DNA of 64,000 bases from Cellulomonas sp. ES6. Lineage in GTDB: Bacteria > Actinomycetota > Actinomycetes > Actinomycetales > Cellulomonadaceae. Positions 2,336 through 16,332 of the stretch are shown here, one piece after another. Positions within the stretch are counted from its first letter, which is position 1. Every line of letters begins with the position of its first letter. The notes beneath the pieces were generated by a model. It was not told where the DNA came from, did no database searches, and saw only the letters and a list, made by a program, of their open reading frames with translations. The position numbers and the translations under genes were made by a program. The DNA lies in assembly GCF_030053835.1 (NCBI RefSeq), contig NZ_CP125655.1, positions 3,472,001-3,536,000 on the forward strand, in the 5' to 3' direction.

Positions 2336-2373
2336 TAATTCGGTTGTGCGCCCCGGGCGGGCCCCTCTACGGT
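2336..2373 (+). promoter_or_regulatory. whiB7 promoter with WhiB7-type AT element
   Basis: An AT-rich TAATT (2336-2340) stands three bases upstream of a -35 TTGTGC (2344-2349), followed by an 18-bp spacer and a -10 TACGGT (2368-2373). WhiB7-dependent promoters are known to need an AT-rich stretch just upstream of the -35, bound by the AT-hook. The arrangement therefore fits autoregulated transcription of whiB7 about 400 bp ahead of its start codon. Confidence 0.75.
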
Positions 2374-2442
2374 GATCGAGTCCTGATGGAAGGCCGCGCT
2401 GTGCGAGCAGCCGGCCCGCGAACCCGGAGGAGGTGAGGTGCG

Positions 2443-2646
2443 GTGAAGATCATGATCAACGAGATCGGCGTGGGCGCGTTCGCGCTGCCGTACCTGGCAC
2501 CGACCCCCGGCACGCACCAGGGGACCACTGTGTCCGCCGCCGTCCGCGGCACCGGCTTCGGCCCGGCGCTCGGCGGCGCTCCCCGGCTGCGCAAGCGCGA
2601 TCTGTCGCTCGCCCCCGACTCCCTCCCTGGAGGTCCGGTCATCTGA
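2443..2646 (+). CDS. whiB7 leader upstream ORF (67 aa)
   Basis: Small ORF inside the whiB7 leader. It begins at GTG 2443 behind a strong GGAGGAGG ribosome site (2427-2434); ATG 2452 in the same frame is an alternative. The peptide starts MKIMINEIGVGAFALPY and has no recognisable domain. Its stop codon (2644-2646) lies in the loop of a small hairpin and 20 bases before an intrinsic terminator, which is the geometry expected of a translation-sensing attenuator. Known whiB7/wblC leaders in mycobacteria and Streptomyces carry upstream ORFs that couple ribosome stalling to read-through. I infer the same role here. The peptide itself may not matter, only its translation. Confidence 0.7.
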   Translation: MKIMINEIGVGAFALPYLAPTPGTHQGTTVSAAVRGTGFGPALGGAPRLRKRDLSLAPDSLPGGPVI

Positions 2647-2657
2647 GTCGATGACCG
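2636..2657 (+). promoter_or_regulatory. Hairpin enclosing the upstream-ORF stop codon
   Basis: CGGTCAT (2636-2642) pairs perfectly with ATGACCG (2651-2657), leaving an 8-base loop that contains the TGA of the upstream ORF. A terminating ribosome would melt it. The TCCGGT at 2634-2639 can alternatively pair with ACCGGA at 2680-2685 inside the next hairpin, giving a possible antiterminator fold. Confidence 0.55.
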
Positions 2658-2665
2658 AGCCGACC

Positions 2666-2704
2666 AGGCCGTGGAGTCCACCGGATTCCACGGCCTTCGT
2701 CCTT
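2666..2704 (+). terminator. whiB7 attenuator (intrinsic terminator-like hairpin)
   Basis: AGGCCGTGGA (2666-2675) is exactly complementary to TCCACGGCCT (2687-2696). The helix continues inward with G-T, T-A, C-G and C-G pairs to a 3-base loop, 14 pairs in all, and is followed by a T-rich tail (TCGTCCTTCT). A second hairpin CTCCCG-CTG-CGGGAG follows at 2705-2719. Both precede the whiB7 ribosome site, so in the basal state transcription could stop here. Confidence 0.75.
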
Positions 2705-2780
2705 CTCCCGCTGCGGGAGGGGCGAGACGCGGGATCCACCCGCTCCCTCGTCTCACCTCGTCAGTCATCAGGAGGACACC

Positions 2781-3128
2781 GTGCGGCTCACCACGCTGCT
2801 CGACACGGTCAACCAGGGCGGTTCCGGACCCTGGCCCCCCGCCGAGAACGCCAGCGCCGCCGACGTGCAGTTCGACGCCCTCGTCGCCGGGCTCATCCCG
2901 TGCCGGTCGAACGACCCGGAGCTCTGGTTCGCCGAGCGCACCGCCGAGGTCGAGCAGGCCAAGGCGCTGTGCCGGACCTGCCCGCTGCTCGAGGGCTGCC
3001 TCGCCGGCGCCGTGGAGCGCCAGGAGCCGTGGGGCGTCTGGGGCGGGGAGGTCTTCGTCGGTGGCCAGGTCGTCGCCGTCAAGCGCGGCCGCGGCCGGCC
3101 CCGCAAGGACGCCAGCCCGGCGGCCTGA
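2781..3128 (+). CDS. whiB7: WhiB7 redox-responsive antibiotic-resistance regulator
   Basis: Iron-sulfur transcription factor that acts with the primary sigma factor to switch on intrinsic resistance to ribosome-targeting drugs. The 115-residue protein has four cluster cysteines (C41, C64, C67, C73 in the pattern C-x22-C-x2-C-x5-C), the WhiB beta-turn EPWGVWGGE (82-90), and a C-terminal AT-hook RGRPRK (104-109) that distinguishes WhiB7 from other WhiB proteins. The GTG start is set by AGGAGG at 2770-2775. The upstream promoter carries the AT-rich element the AT-hook would recognise, and a long leader with an upstream ORF and attenuator controls read-through. Its position beside uvrD2 agrees with the identification. 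Confidence 0.95.
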   Translation: MRLTTLLDTVNQGGSGPWPPAENASAADVQFDALVAGLIPCRSNDPELWFAERTAEVEQAKALCRTCPLLEGCLAGAVERQEPWGVWGGEVFVGGQVVAVKRGRGRPRKDASPAA

Positions 3129-5169: not shown

Positions 5170-8100
5170 TCACCGGCAGGCCTGCGGGCGGTCCACCTCG
5201 CCCGCCAGGCGCTCCCACTCGTCGTCGGACAGGGACGTCCCGCGCGCGGCGGTCGCGCAGACCCGGCCGAGCGCCCCCTCGACGGTGAGGTCCCACACCC
5301 GCACCGTGCGGTCCGCGGCCGCCGCGGTGAGGTGCGTGCCGTCGGGGGAGAACTCCACGCCGTACACCGTCCCGTCGGCGCCCGACAGGCTCGCCCAGCG
5401 GGTGGGGTGTGCGGGGTCCGTCACGTCCCACACCCGCACGGTCCCGTCGGTGCGGCCGACGGCCAGCCGGTGCCCGTCCGGGGAGAAGGCGGAGTTGGTG
5501 CCGTAGCCCTCACCCCATCGCAGCGGCGGGCCGAGCGGGTCGGGCGCGGCAGGGTCCTCCACGTCCCACAGCCACACCGTGCCGTCGTTGCCCGTGGCGG
5601 CGACGGTGCGGCCGTCCGGGCTGTACGCGGCGGAGTACACGTAGCCCGCCGGTCCGGTCACGGGGTCGCCCAGCGGTCGCGGGGCGGCGAGGTCGCGGAC
5701 GTCCAGCAGTCGCACGGAGCCCGACAGCACGGCGGCGACCAGCGTGCCGCCGTCGGGGGAGAACGCCACCACGTACACGGCGCCGCCGAGGTCGCCCACC
5801 CGCCCGGTGGGCGTGGCGGGGAGACCGTCCGCGACGCCGCCGGAGAGGTCCCACGTCGTGACGGTCCCGTCGTCGGAGGACGCCGCGAGCCGCGTGCCGG
5901 TCGCGTCGAACGCCACCGTGTCGACCCAGTCGGTGTGGGCGCGCGCGGAGCCGAGCAGCACGGGGGCGCCGGGGTCGCGCAGGTCGTAGGCGTGGATCCC
6001 GCCCGTCGTGTCACCCACGACCGCGATGCCCAGGGCGTCCGAGACGGCCACGGCCCCGTCCAGCCGGGCGCCGCGCGGGGGTGCCGCGGACCCGCGGTGG
6101 CGGGCGCGGGCCGGGTCGGTGACGTCCCAGACGTGGACGCCGTCCGTCGTGCTGGTCACCACCAGCGGTGCGCCGGCCACCGTGCCGAAGGCGCCCTGCC
6201 CGGGGATGGACGCGAACCCGGCGAGCACCGGGCCCGGGTGCACCCACTCGCGCAGCACGCCGTCGGCCCCCGAGGCGTAGACCGCGCCGCCGTCGGGCGA
6301 CCAGCGGGCGGCGAGCAGCGTGGTCGGGCTCGCCGCCCCGCCCGCGACGGCGCCCGTCGCCAGGTCCCAGACCCACAGCCGCTGGTCGGAGCCTGCGGCG
6401 GCCAGCAGCCCGCCGTCCGGGCTGAACGCCACGTCGTTCACCCACGACGCCGGACCGGTGAGCGTCGTGCCCACCTCGGGTGCCGCCGGGTCGCGGGCGT
6501 CCACGACGTGCACCACGCCGGCGGTCGTCCCGGCCGCCAGCGTCGTCCCGTCGGGGGACCACGCGAGGGCGGCGACGGGGGCCTCGCCGAGGGGCGGGCC
6601 CGGGGCGGCGGCGGCCGGGGCGGCGGGGTCGCGGACGTCCCAGAGGGTGAGCGCGCCGGTGGACCCGCCCGCGGCGAGCACGCCGTCCCGGAGCGCCACC
6701 GCCTGGGTGGCGCCGCCGGGCGACACCGGCAGGACGGCGGCGGGCTCGGGCGCCGTCGGGCCGGTGCCGGGGCCGACGGTCCACAGGTGGACGGTCCCGT
6801 CGGACGCGCCCGCCGCGACCACCCCGTCGTCGACGGCTAGGTCGTACAGCGTCGCACCCGCCGCCGGCCCCTCGACGGGCAGCGGCCGGGGGTCGTCCGG
6901 GTCCTCGACCGACCAGGCGCGCAGCAGCCCCGCGTCGCCCCCGGCCAGCAGCCCGCGTCCGTCCGGCGTGAACGCGACCGCGTAGAGCGCGCCGTCGTCG
7001 ACGGGCAGCTCGCCCACCGGGTGCGGCTCGTCGCCCAGCGCCCACAGCGCCACGGCCGACCCGTCGGTGGCCGCCGCGAGCAGCGCGCCGTCGGGGCTGA
7101 CGGCGACGCCGTTGACGAGCGCGCCCACCGACCCGAGCCGGGCGGGGACGGCCGTGCCCGTCGTGGACAGCAGGGCGGACCGTGCCTCGAGGGTGCCGGC
7201 CGTCGCCAGCGCCGCGGCGGCCACCTGCGCGGACAGGTCGGGGTCCGTCGCGGCGAGCGACTGCGCCGTGACCGCGAGCTGCCGGGAGACCGCCAGGTCC
7301 CGCTCCCGCTCCCGGGTCCGGGACTGGGCCGCGGCGGCGCCTGCGAGCACCGCGGTGCTCACCGTGAGCACGGCGAGCCCGGCCGAGAGCACGCGGAGCC
7401 GGCGGGCCGAGCGCCGCTGCGCCGCAGCCTGCCGGTCCCGGGACCCGCGGCTCGCGTCGAGGTACGCGTTCTCGACGGCGGTCGCCGCCCCGCCCCCCGT
7501 GCGCCACGCCAGCGCCGCCTCGAGCTGCACACCGCGCAGCTCGAGGTCGGGGTCGCGGCCCGCGTCATCCCAGTGCCGCGCGGCCTCCGCCAGCCGGCCG
7601 TGCAGCCGCAGCGCCTCCCTGTCGTCCTCGATCCACCCGGCCAGGCGGGGCCACGCCGTGAGCAGCGCCTCGTGCGCCAGGCGGACGTGCCCGCGGTCGG
7701 CGGTGAGCAGGCGCGCGGCGACGAGCGCGTCGACCACCTCCACGGTGGCGGCCCGGCCCGGGGCGTCCGCAACGTCGCCGGCCGCGGACGTGCCCGCGAG
7801 GTCGTCCAGCGCGAGCGGGCGGCCCGCGACGTGGTGGTCGCGCACGTGGACCAGGCCGAGCAGGACGCGCCGGGCGACCGCCAGCCGCTCCGGTGGCCAG
7901 CCCCCGACGACGCCCTCCGCCGTCTGGGCGATCGCCCCGCCCAGGCCGCCCACCGCCCGGTACTGCGCGAGCGTGAGCCGGCGACCGGACGCGGCGCGCC
8001 ACGTCGCGTACAGCGCGTGGGACACCAGCGGCAGCACACCGGGGTCGAGCGTCCCGCGTCCCGCCGCCGAGGCGCCGGACGTCGCGTCGGCGACCAGCAC

Positions 8101-9075
8101 GTCGACCAGGGCCTCCTCGACGTCCAGCCCGACCCGGCGGGCCGGCTCCTCGACGACGCGGCGCAGGTCGGCGGGCGTGAGCGGTGCCACCAGCACCGGC
8201 CGGTCCGCCAACCAGCGCGCCAGGCCGTCGTGCGCGAGGGCGCGGTCCACCACGTCGGCTCGCAGGCCGACCACCACCGTCGTCCCGGCCGCGTGCAGCG
8301 CCCCGAGCCCGTCCAGCAGCGCCGCGCCCCCGTCCGGGGCGAGCAGCGCCTCCTCGAGCTGGTCGACCACGAGGACGCGCGCGCCCGTCGCCGCCACGAG
8401 GGCGTCCGGCGGCGGGTCGTCGCCCGGCGTGGTCACGACGGCCACGTCACCGGTCTCCCGCAGCCGCGCCACCAGCCCGGCGCGCAGCAGCGACGACTTG
8501 CCCGACCCGGAGGCGGCGAGCACCACGACCGGACCGGCCCCGGCGTCCGCGACCCGCGCCGCCAGGTCGTCCACCGCGGCCTCCCGGCCGACGAACAGCG
8601 CCGCGTGCGCGACGTCGTACGGCGCCAGGCCGCGGTACGGCGCCTGCGCCGACGCCGGGCGCGGACCCGGGGCGCGGCGCAGCCGGCCGACGAGGGCCAC
8701 CCACCCCGCGCGCTCCGGCTCCGGCACCCCGAGCGCGGCGAGCATCCGCTCGAACTGCTCCACGGTCGCCGGCTGCGGCAGGTGCCGGCCGGACAGGTAG
8801 CCTCCGGCGGTCCCCAGGGGCAGGCCGGCCAGCCGGGCCACGTCCCGCACGCTCAGCCCGGCGCGCTCCCGCAGCCCGGTCAGCGCCCGGGCGAGACCCG
8901 CGCGGTCGTCGACGGAGCCGGGGCCGCCGGGGAGGGCGCCGGACCGGCCCGCCGCGTCCTGCCCGTCCCGGTCCTCCTGCGCGGCGGCGGGCTGCTCCTG
9001 CGCGGCGGCGGGCTGCTCCTGCGCGGCGGCGCGGGGCTGCGGCGCGGGTCCCGCGGGCACGTCCTCGGTGTCCAT
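5170..9075 (-). CDS. HTH - STAND NTPase - TM - WD40 propeller protein
   Basis: Large 1301-residue multidomain protein. Order: repetitive Q/A-rich tail (15-35); an XRE-like helix-turn-helix (about 60-118, SVRDVARLAGLPLGTAGGYLSG); a conserved PYRGLAPYDVAHAALFVGRE linker; a STAND-type P-loop NTPase with Walker A ASGSGKSS (188-195) and Walker B VLVVDQLEE (234-242); a helical arm to ~545; one membrane span (about 562-583); then a long C-terminal region (~640-1280) of repeated [FV]SPDG and D-x-x-x-[VL]-x-[LV]-W motifs, about 14 WD40 blades and so probably two propellers. Such nSTAND1 proteins are thought to oligomerise after ligand sensing by the propeller. The output is not obvious: either the HTH or an unseen partner. 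It stands alone, with a leaderless-type -10 (TACGGT on the minus strand). Confidence 0.85.
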   Translation of the reverse strand: MDTEDVPAGPAPQPRAAAQEQPAAAQEQPAAAQEDRDGQDAAGRSGALPGGPGSVDDRAGLARALTGLRERAGLSVRDVARLAGLPLGTAGGYLSGRHLPQPATVEQFERMLAALGVPEPERAGWVALVGRLRRAPGPRPASAQAPYRGLAPYDVAHAALFVGREAAVDDLAARVADAGAGPVVVLAASGSGKSSLLRAGLVARLRETGDVAVVTTPGDDPPPDALVAATGARVLVVDQLEEALLAPDGGAALLDGLGALHAAGTTVVVGLRADVVDRALAHDGLARWLADRPVLVAPLTPADLRRVVEEPARRVGLDVEEALVDVLVADATSGASAAGRGTLDPGVLPLVSHALYATWRAASGRRLTLAQYRAVGGLGGAIAQTAEGVVGGWPPERLAVARRVLLGLVHVRDHHVAGRPLALDDLAGTSAAGDVADAPGRAATVEVVDALVAARLLTADRGHVRLAHEALLTAWPRLAGWIEDDREALRLHGRLAEAARHWDDAGRDPDLELRGVQLEAALAWRTGGGAATAVENAYLDASRGSRDRQAAAQRRSARRLRVLSAGLAVLTVSTAVLAGAAAAQSRTRERERDLAVSRQLAVTAQSLAATDPDLSAQVAAAALATAGTLEARSALLSTTGTAVPARLGSVGALVNGVAVSPDGALLAAATDGSAVALWALGDEPHPVGELPVDDGALYAVAFTPDGRGLLAGGDAGLLRAWSVEDPDDPRPLPVEGPAAGATLYDLAVDDGVVAAGASDGTVHLWTVGPGTGPTAPEPAAVLPVSPGGATQAVALRDGVLAAGGSTGALTLWDVRDPAAPAAAAPGPPLGEAPVAALAWSPDGTTLAAGTTAGVVHVVDARDPAAPEVGTTLTGPASWVNDVAFSPDGGLLAAAGSDQRLWVWDLATGAVAGGAASPTTLLAARWSPDGGAVYASGADGVLREWVHPGPVLAGFASIPGQGAFGTVAGAPLVVTSTTDGVHVWDVTDPARARHRGSAAPPRGARLDGAVAVSDALGIAVVGDTTGGIHAYDLRDPGAPVLLGSARAHTDWVDTVAFDATGTRLAASSDDGTVTTWDLSGGVADGLPATPTGRVGDLGGAVYVVAFSPDGGTLVAAVLSGSVRLLDVRDLAAPRPLGDPVTGPAGYVYSAAYSPDGRTVAATGNDGTVWLWDVEDPAAPDPLGPPLRWGEGYGTNSAFSPDGHRLAVGRTDGTVRVWDVTDPAHPTRWASLSGADGTVYGVEFSPDGTHLTAAAADRTVRVWDLTVEGALGRVCATAARGTSLSDDEWERLAGEVDRPQACR
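8974..9031 (-). repeat. 21-bp in-frame tandem repeat, 2.8 copies
   Basis: A 21-bp unit occurs at 8974-8994 and 8995-9015 and partly at 9016-9031. It encodes the QEQPAAA repeat in the N-terminal tail of the STAND protein. Copies one and two are identical, suggesting recent slippage or expansion. Confidence 0.85.
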
Positions 9076-16258: not shown

Positions 16259-16332
16259 CGCGGGGTGGAGCAGCTCGGTAGCTCGCTGGGCTCATAACCC
16301 AGAGGTCGCAGGTTCAAATCCTGCCCCCGCTA
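16259..16332 (+). tRNA. Initiator tRNA-fMet (CAT)
   Basis: A 74-base cloverleaf with acceptor CGCGGGG, D-arm GAGCAGCTCGGTAGCTC, anticodon arm CTGGG-CTCATAA-CCCAG, and T-arm with GTTCAAATC. Initiator hallmarks are visible: no Watson-Crick pair at position 1-72 (C1 opposite U72) and three consecutive G-C pairs closing the anticodon stem. The 3' CCA is not encoded. It stands as a single gene with its own promoter and a strong terminator downstream. Confidence 0.97.

What the first reader, a model, noticed from the sequence alone, without database searches (positions are those of the whole stretch)
2336..2780. Complete whiB7 control region: WhiB7-type promoter, upstream ORF, attenuator
In one ~440-bp leader I can see an AT-rich element 3 bp before a TTGTGC -35, an 18-bp spacer, a TACGGT -10, a 67-codon ORF with a strong ribosome site, and a 14-pair terminator hairpin with a T-rich tail before whiB7. 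This is how whiB7/wblC genes are known to be switched on by ribosome stress. Here the parts can be mapped base by base in a Cellulomonas-like genome.
Basis: partly seen in the sequence, partly recalled or inferred. Interest (0 to 1): 0.75.

Follow-up and report, generated by a model that had tools for sequence, protein, structure and literature searches.

The report
Antibiotic-stress switch before whiB7
This stretch is the control region of a bacterial antibiotic-resistance regulator, of a known kind in which a small upstream gene senses ribosome trouble; it also carries a conserved sequence that looks like a built-in pause signal for RNA polymerase, which I did not find described for this gene.

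Summary
Window 2336-2780 carries a WhiB7-type promoter, a 67-codon uORF with a strong ribosome site and a 14-pair terminator before whiB7, in a Cellulomonas near C. hominis. These parts recur across the genus (promoter in 76 of 77 leaders; hairpin in all 69 distinct aligned rows). It is the published whiB7/wblC uORF attenuator; the core is not new. Two missed parts were worked out. (1) An antiterminator: the uORF end pairs with the terminator's 5' arm, with the UGA in its apical loop. Leaders mostly pair better with their own arm than with foreign ones; column covariation is inconclusive. (2) A nucleotide element inside the uORF (2517-2535) fits the elemental RNA-polymerase pause consensus. 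It is conserved in the genus (74 of 77) and in part of the class. Its T falls on a wobble base in 63 of 66 rows (about 1.3 expected), and some lineages read the same bases in another frame. That points to nucleic acid rather than peptide as the constrained object. Pausing itself is untested.

The parts
2336..2340 (+). AT-rich WhiB7-binding element (TAATT), 3 bp before the -35
   Evidence: sequence; promoter found in 76 of 77 genus leaders; binding inferred from published relatives
2344..2349 (+). -35 hexamer TTGTGC
2368..2373 (+). -10 hexamer TACGGT; start site expected about 2380-2381 (7-8 bp downstream, S. coelicolor rule in PMC7157823; inferred)
2428..2436 (+). Shine-Dalgarno AGGAGGTGA of the uORF
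2443..2646 (+). uORF, GTG start, 67 codons, TGA stop
2517..2535 (+). pause-like element CCAGGGGACCACTGTGTCC; predicted paused RNA 3' end at 2531, next base G2532
2617..2661 (+). antiterminator 5' side and apex: 2617-2623 and 2626-2630 pair downstream, 2632-2634 pairs with 2659-2661; apical hairpin 2636-2643/2650-2657 with stop codon UGA 2644-2646 in the loop
   Evidence: fold -37.9 kcal/mol, z -4.58; own-arm test
2664..2678 (+). antiterminator 3' side (2664-2668, 2671, 2673-2678), overlapping the terminator 5' arm
2666..2696 (+). intrinsic terminator hairpin, 14 pairs, loop ACC
2697..2708 (+). interrupted T-rich tail (5 T of 12)
2770..2775 (+). Shine-Dalgarno AGGAGG of whiB7
2781..3128 (+). 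whiB7 (115 aa, GTG start)

Best explanation
The region is a complete whiB7/wblC-type, ribosome-controlled transcription attenuator behind an autoregulated WhiB7 promoter. The primary sigma factor, with WhiB7 bound at the AT element, starts transcription near 2380. RNA polymerase probably slows at the pause-like element (RNA end at 2531, about 150 nt into the transcript and 89 nt from the uORF start), giving a ribosome time to load and catch up. If translation runs normally, the ribosome reaches the UGA at 2644-2646 and covers the antiterminator 5' strand, so the terminator 2666-2696 forms and the transcript ends near 2697-2708. If ribosomes stall or fail early in the uORF, the end of the uORF pairs with the terminator 5' arm, polymerase reads through, whiB7 is made, and it raises its own promoter. 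Shown here by computation: all parts, their conservation, and mutually exclusive folds. Inferred from published relatives: drug-dependent read-through and autoregulation. Inferred from sequence only: the pause (about 0.6 likely).
For: Gene identity. Promoter, uORF spacing and terminator conserved across the genus; promoter plus uORF called in 49 of 60 family/order loci and 58 of 60 class loci. Terminator z -7.19; 91.3% of cells paired against at most 90.7% in 500 row permutations. Antiterminator z -4.58 with the stop codon in the apical loop. In one search the leader interacts better with its own terminator arm than with the mean of up to 30 foreign arms in 39 of 50 genus, 24 of 29 family/order and 47 of 52 class leaders; window -17.6 versus -10.7 kcal/mol, matched by none of its foreign arms. 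Pause element: 63 of 66 distinct rows have T at the wobble base, 1.35 expected from codon usage; 74 of 77 genus uORFs at p up to 0.02 (matrix trained on the genus).
Against: No expression data for this organism. The antiterminator helices show no covariation beyond composition (84.9% paired versus 84.8% permuted for one, 72.2% versus 71.6% for the other). The 9 double-sided changes in the terminator come from two groups of three related leaders. In the genus the antiterminator is on average not more stable than the terminator (-25.9 versus -26.8 kcal/mol), although it is in the window. In L065, L066 and L068 the own arm is about equal to foreign arms (the script cut the L065/L066 arms to 10 nt). 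With codon-shuffled controls the simple duplex test was weak (mean z -0.59, 37 of 109 below -1). The terminator tail is poor in T. A strict hairpin was missed in 44 of 184 leaders.
Confidence: 0.86

Rival explanations
1. The conserved mid-uORF motif (QGxxVP/S) is a nascent-peptide arrest sequence that makes ribosomes stall with certain drugs, so the peptide, not the nucleic acid, is the signal.
For: The motif is in frame 0 in all 66 strict genus matches and in 31 of 44 outside matches at p up to 0.02, and the residues Q, G, V/L and P/S recur (the G is required by the search pattern).
Against: The conserved wobble T stays while the residue it belongs to varies over A, G, T, S, R and P (63 of 66). 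Ten outside leaders (p up to 0.05; 8 at p up to 0.02) carry the same consensus in frame 2 and mostly encode TGEVRP-like peptides instead (found with a matrix trained on frame 0). Peptide changes are mostly non-synonymous.
Confidence: 0.15
2. The mid-uORF element is an RNA structure, for example a short hairpin of G-11 G-10 G-9 with Y+2 C+3 C+4, or a binding site for a protein, rather than a polymerase pause signal.
For: GGG and YCC are both conserved and Y (C or T) can pair with G.
Against: Only 3 pairs with a 9-nt loop. Where -9 is C (10 of 31 outside frame-0 leaders) the partner stays C or T, so that pair is broken. It does not explain T-3, Y-1 and G+1, which lie in the loop. No Rfam family reaches its threshold here. 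A protein site was not tested.
Confidence: 0.2
3. The element is an internal ribosome start (SD-like AGGGG plus GTG/CTG) that restarts translation inside the uORF.
For: A chance copy elsewhere in the genome (L143) would serve as SD plus GTG start of another ORF (my reading).
Against: At the start-codon place 5 of 66 genus rows hold GCG or CCG (a sixth, ACC, is the misplaced L021), and 9 of 10 outside frame-2 leaders have Y-1 = C, which destroys a start codon but keeps the pause consensus. It does not explain the wobble T.
Confidence: 0.07
4. Control is mainly at whiB7 translation: the structured spacer between terminator and whiB7 hides its ribosome site and the upstream hairpin is only a weak terminator.
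For: whiB7 SD pairing probability 0.92 versus 0.75 in controls, higher in 54 of 61; post-terminator spacer more structured than shuffles (mean z -2.34, 42 of 63 below -1.64).
Against: Published relatives are described as controlled by transcript termination (PMC4128351, PMC13393426, passages); the terminator is the most conserved part of the alignment.
Confidence: 0.1

Closest known systems
whiB7/wblC uORF attenuator of mycobacteria and Streptomyces (Lee 2022, not held; described in PMC11550727, PMC13393426, PMC4128351, PMC13236596, passages)
   Same: WhiB7-type promoter, uORF with strong SD, intrinsic terminator before whiB7, antiterminator formed when uORF translation fails
   Different: Mapped here in Cellulomonas with its own antiterminator rod; a pause-like element inside the uORF. 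The passages I read describe no pause site in the whiB7 leader (PMC13236596 does link a slow polymerase to weaker whiB7 induction). A search for whiB7 with two pausing terms (10 of 118 papers listed) gave two papers holding all three terms, both with whiB7 only in references.
tlrB (yxjB) leader of Bacillus subtilis (PMC6851288, passages)
   Same: Polymerase pause gives the leader-peptide ribosome time to load in an antibiotic-responsive attenuator
   Different: There the pause is NusG-dependent with a T-rich motif and a pause hairpin; here it is a G-rich elemental-type consensus, predicted only, and lies within the uORF coding sequence
his/leu leader pauses of Escherichia coli (PMC9291695, passages)
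   Same: G-10 Y-1 G+1 consensus in a leader; the leu pause was proposed to synchronise translation and transcription
   Different: Those have an upstream pause hairpin and belong to amino-acid operons; no run of codons for one amino acid is evident here (my reading) and no pause hairpin was tested

Membership tests
whiB7/wblC attenuator leader | Downstream gene is WhiB7 (four cysteines, EPWGVWGG, AT-hook) | tested here: met
   motifs read from sequence; the next-best match in the genome is E 7.2e-8 at 40% identity
whiB7/wblC attenuator leader | AT-rich element 3 bp before the -35, 16-19-bp spacer | tested here: met
   motif definition from PMC7157823 passages
whiB7/wblC attenuator leader | Translated uORF between promoter and whiB7 | tested here: met
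   frame, SD and spacing conserved; translation itself not measured
whiB7/wblC attenuator leader | Intrinsic terminator between uORF and whiB7 | tested here: met
   termination not measured; not found by the consensus scan
whiB7/wblC attenuator leader | Antiterminator mutually exclusive with the terminator | tested here: met
   fold and own-arm test; column covariation inconclusive
whiB7/wblC attenuator leader | Read-through induced by ribosome inhibitors | not testable with these tools
   needs RNA from drug-treated cells
Pause-assisted leader attenuator | Elemental pause consensus G-11 G-10 T-3 G-2 Y-1 G+1 at a fixed place | tested here: met
   73 of 74 significant genus leaders fit the five positions without G-2, 46 with it; TSS to pause median 154 nt, IQR 152-155, for an assumed TSS; consensus from a PMC6062546 passage
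Pause-assisted leader attenuator | Pause-stabilising hairpin 10-13 nt upstream of the RNA end | not tested
   not examined
Pause-assisted leader attenuator | Measured polymerase dwell | not testable with these tools
   needs NET-seq or in vitro transcription

The most novel reading that the evidence does not exclude
whiB7/wblC leaders across many actinobacterial lineages carry a programmed RNA-polymerase pause site written into the uORF codons, conserved as nucleic acid even where the reading frame over it differs. It would hold polymerase about 150 nt (genus) to 200 nt (class) from the start until the sensing ribosome arrives, so this resistance switch would measure ribosome speed against a built-in polymerase stop.
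Probability: 0.5. Interest if true: 0.68.

Novelty: new variant of a known kind. Interest (0 to 1): 0.5.

Why it matters
whiB7/wblC is a central switch for intrinsic antibiotic resistance in actinobacteria. A base-by-base map in Cellulomonas, with an antiterminator and a candidate pause site, turns the question of how one unspecific leader responds to many ribosome drugs into a testable timing model. If the pause is real, synchronising polymerase and ribosome would be part of the sensor, and uORF sequence conservation in such leaders should be read as polymerase signals as well as peptides.

Tried and rejected
Peptide-arrest, internal-start and local-hairpin readings of the mid-uORF element were weighed and ranked lower (see rivals). 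The codon-shuffle duplex test for the antiterminator was too weak because everything is GC-rich, and in L017, L019 and L026 it used the wrong arm; it was replaced by the foreign-arm test. The first run of that test lost most genus terminators through a scoring fault and was redone. Column covariation exceeds permutation for the terminator but not for the antiterminator. The regex that collected motif rows requires a glycine codon, so G at -11 and -10 is 100% by construction; it missed L058 and L079 and took a wrong place in L021, which stays in the 66 rows and was dropped from the matrix. The matrix was trained on the genus, so genus significance is not independent, and related leaders are not independent rows. 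In one search the relaxed pattern in 20 class uORFs (6, against a shuffle mean of 2.5 and maximum of 8) was not beyond the shuffles, and the strict pattern was in 0 of those 20. Frame-1 hits (5, of which 1 fits the consensus) look like chance. Rfam had no leader family at its thresholds. NCBIfam gave no hit for WhiB7.

Full report
Observation. The promoter is TAATT (2336-2340), 3 bp, TTGTGC (2344-2349), an 18-bp spacer and TACGGT (2368-2373). The uORF runs from GTG 2443 to TGA 2646 (67 codons) behind AGGAGGTGA (2428-2436). The hairpin 2666-2679/2683-2696 has 14 pairs, one of them G-U; 2662-2710 folds at -29.2 kcal/mol with z -7.19. Its tail holds 5 T in 12, and a simple consensus scan finds neither promoter nor terminator. 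The gene at 2781-3125 is WhiB7 (Pfam Whib; PDB WhiB7 E 2.9e-27). The gene before it is a UvrD-type helicase with an HRDC domain.

Context. The window lies in a 4.12-Mb single-contig genome with one WhiB7 match at E 5.1e-76 and four weaker matches, the best at E 7.2e-8. 77 of 81 genomes of the genus have a match at E up to 1e-20. Among named records (best 80 of 376 kept) the closest are a Micrococcales MAG at 99% and Cellulomonas hominis at 95% identity. In the 77 genus leaders the promoter is found in 76 (75, which used another AT window). The uORF start lies a median 100 nt after the -35 (IQR 99-101, n=76) and the uORF has 50-97 codons. A CCG(C/T)GG match follows the stop in 77 of 77 (three of these hit the 3' arm; 8 of 49 outside leaders had none), and all 69 distinct rows of the alignment show the hairpin. 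Outside the genus, promoter plus uORF was called in 49 of 60 family/order loci and 58 of 60 class loci. This is the published whiB7/wblC leader: WblC motif 3 bp upstream of -35 with a 16-19-bp spacer (PMC7157823, passages), and uORF, terminator and antiterminator (PMC11550727, PMC13393426, PMC4128351, passages). The primary paper, Lee 2022, is not held and I did not see it.

The uORF as a peptide. Over all pairs of 10 close leaders the differences fall about evenly on the three codon positions (550, 549 and 428), with 892 non-synonymous and 190 synonymous codon changes, while frame and stop persist. Translation seems to matter more than the peptide, apart from the two stretches below.

Antiterminator. 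The genus alignment shows a GGACTCC-like segment near the uORF stop facing GGAGTCC in the terminator 5' arm. In the window, 2614-2682 folds into one rod at -37.9 kcal/mol, z -4.58: 2617-2623 with 2671 and 2673-2678, 2626-2630 with 2664-2668, 2632-2634 with 2659-2661, and an apical hairpin 2636-2643/2650-2657 whose loop holds the UGA. It uses most of the terminator 5' arm, so the two folds exclude each other, and a ribosome at the stop would sit on its 5' side. In one search a leader pairs better with its own arm than with the mean of up to 30 foreign arms in 39 of 50 genus, 24 of 29 family/order and 47 of 52 class leaders (Wilcoxon p 8e-8, 6e-7 and 3e-9; related rows are not independent). The window scores -17.6 versus -10.7 kcal/mol. 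Against: in fixed alignment columns one helix shows 84.9% paired cells versus 84.8% after permuting rows and the other 72.2% versus 71.6%, so covariation is inconclusive. The terminator shows 91.3% versus at most 90.7% permuted, but its 9 double-sided changes come from two groups of three related leaders. L065, L066 and L068 do not favour their own arm, although by eye and in the duplex L065 and L066 carry matching changes on both sides (GGGCTTC facing GAAGCCC). In the genus the antiterminator is on average not more stable than the terminator (-25.9 versus -26.8 kcal/mol).

Pause-like element. Mostly at uORF codons 22-29 the genus shares CCAGGGGNNNNNT(G/C)(T/C)GYCC; in the window it is 2517-2535. 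It fits the extended elemental pause consensus G-11 G-10 T-3 G-2 Y-1 G+1 (quoted in PMC6062546, passage; shorter form in PMC12288461 and PMC9291695, passages), with the RNA end at 2531 and the next base G2532. Tests: 63 of 66 distinct rows have T at a wobble position, where 1.35 is expected from codon usage (2,430 codons of four window ORFs); 10.9% of wobble bases are T elsewhere in the same uORFs, which would give about 7; the residue at that codon varies. GGG is used in 62 of 66 rows against 19.5 expected. The strict pattern occurs in 66 of 77 genus uORFs, always in frame 0, and 0 times in 66,690 nt of flanking sequence; it occurs 5 times on both strands of the whole window. The relaxed pattern occurs in 73 of 77 genus uORFs, against a codon-shuffle mean of 8.7; in 11 of 30 other-genus (2.9), 8 of 19 other-family (1.9) and 6 of 20 other-order uORFs (2.5, maximum 8, so not beyond chance there). 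With a matrix trained on the genus and codon-shuffled controls, p is at most 0.02 in 74 of 77 genus, 7 of 30 other-genus, 12 of 19 other-family and 25 of 58 other-order uORFs; 2% would be expected. Of the 44 outside hits 31 are frame 0 (28 fit the five-position consensus), 8 are frame 2 (10 at p up to 0.05, all fitting), and 5 are frame 1 (1 fits; probably chance). Many outside leaders show no such element. Frame-2 lineages mostly encode TGEVRP-like residues where frame-0 lineages encode QGTGLP-like residues, over the same consensus. From an assumed TSS the predicted pause lies a median 154 nt away in the genus (IQR 152-155). In the genus start to motif varies less (sd 11) than motif to stop (sd 30); in other genera of the family it is the reverse (40 and 28). 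A local hairpin is not supported by co-change, and variants with Y-1 = C rule out a required start codon.

Mechanism. Pausing that gives a leader ribosome time to load is known for B. subtilis tlrB (PMC6851288, passages), and mycobacterial NusG is pro-pausing (PMC12288462, passages). I therefore propose that the element synchronises polymerase and ribosome in whiB7 leaders. This step is inferred from sequence. In print: the search for whiB7 with two pausing terms found 118 papers with at least two terms, of which 10 were listed; the two holding all three mention whiB7 only in their references. The search for Cellulomonas with whiB7 gave one review, listing only seen. Most subscription papers are not in that library, so absence there is weak evidence.

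Verdict. The finding is real and correctly interpreted; its core is a known system, here in a new member. The added value is the antiterminator map and a conserved nucleotide element with the signature of a polymerase pause site.

Noticed in passing
window 2709-2780: The spacer between terminator and whiB7 is more structured than shuffles in the genus (mean z -2.34, 42 of 63 below -1.64) and the whiB7 Shine-Dalgarno is paired more than in controls (0.92 versus 0.75, 54 of 61): a possible second, translational layer.
   Followed up: partly
window 2386-2436: A 16-codon ORF (ATG, SD-like match of 7) lies before the uORF and its stop overlaps the uORF ribosome site; among the genus leaders it is seen in this form only in the near-identical L001, L006 and L007.
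   Followed up: no
L143 (genome C1 1352547-1352563): A second copy of the pause-like pattern in this genome would be the ribosome site plus GTG start of another ORF, a coincidence that shows how SD plus start can mimic the motif.
   Followed up: partly
window 5170-9075, - strand: A 1301-codon ORF whose translation looks like a helix-turn-helix plus NTPase plus WD40-repeat protein (impression from the translation; no family search).
   Followed up: no
window 16259-16332, + strand: A tRNA gene, the only Rfam match in the window at gathering thresholds.
   Followed up: no
order-level search: Only 102 of 198 genomes searched in the order have a WhiB7 match at E up to 1e-15; loss or divergence was not separated.
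   Followed up: no
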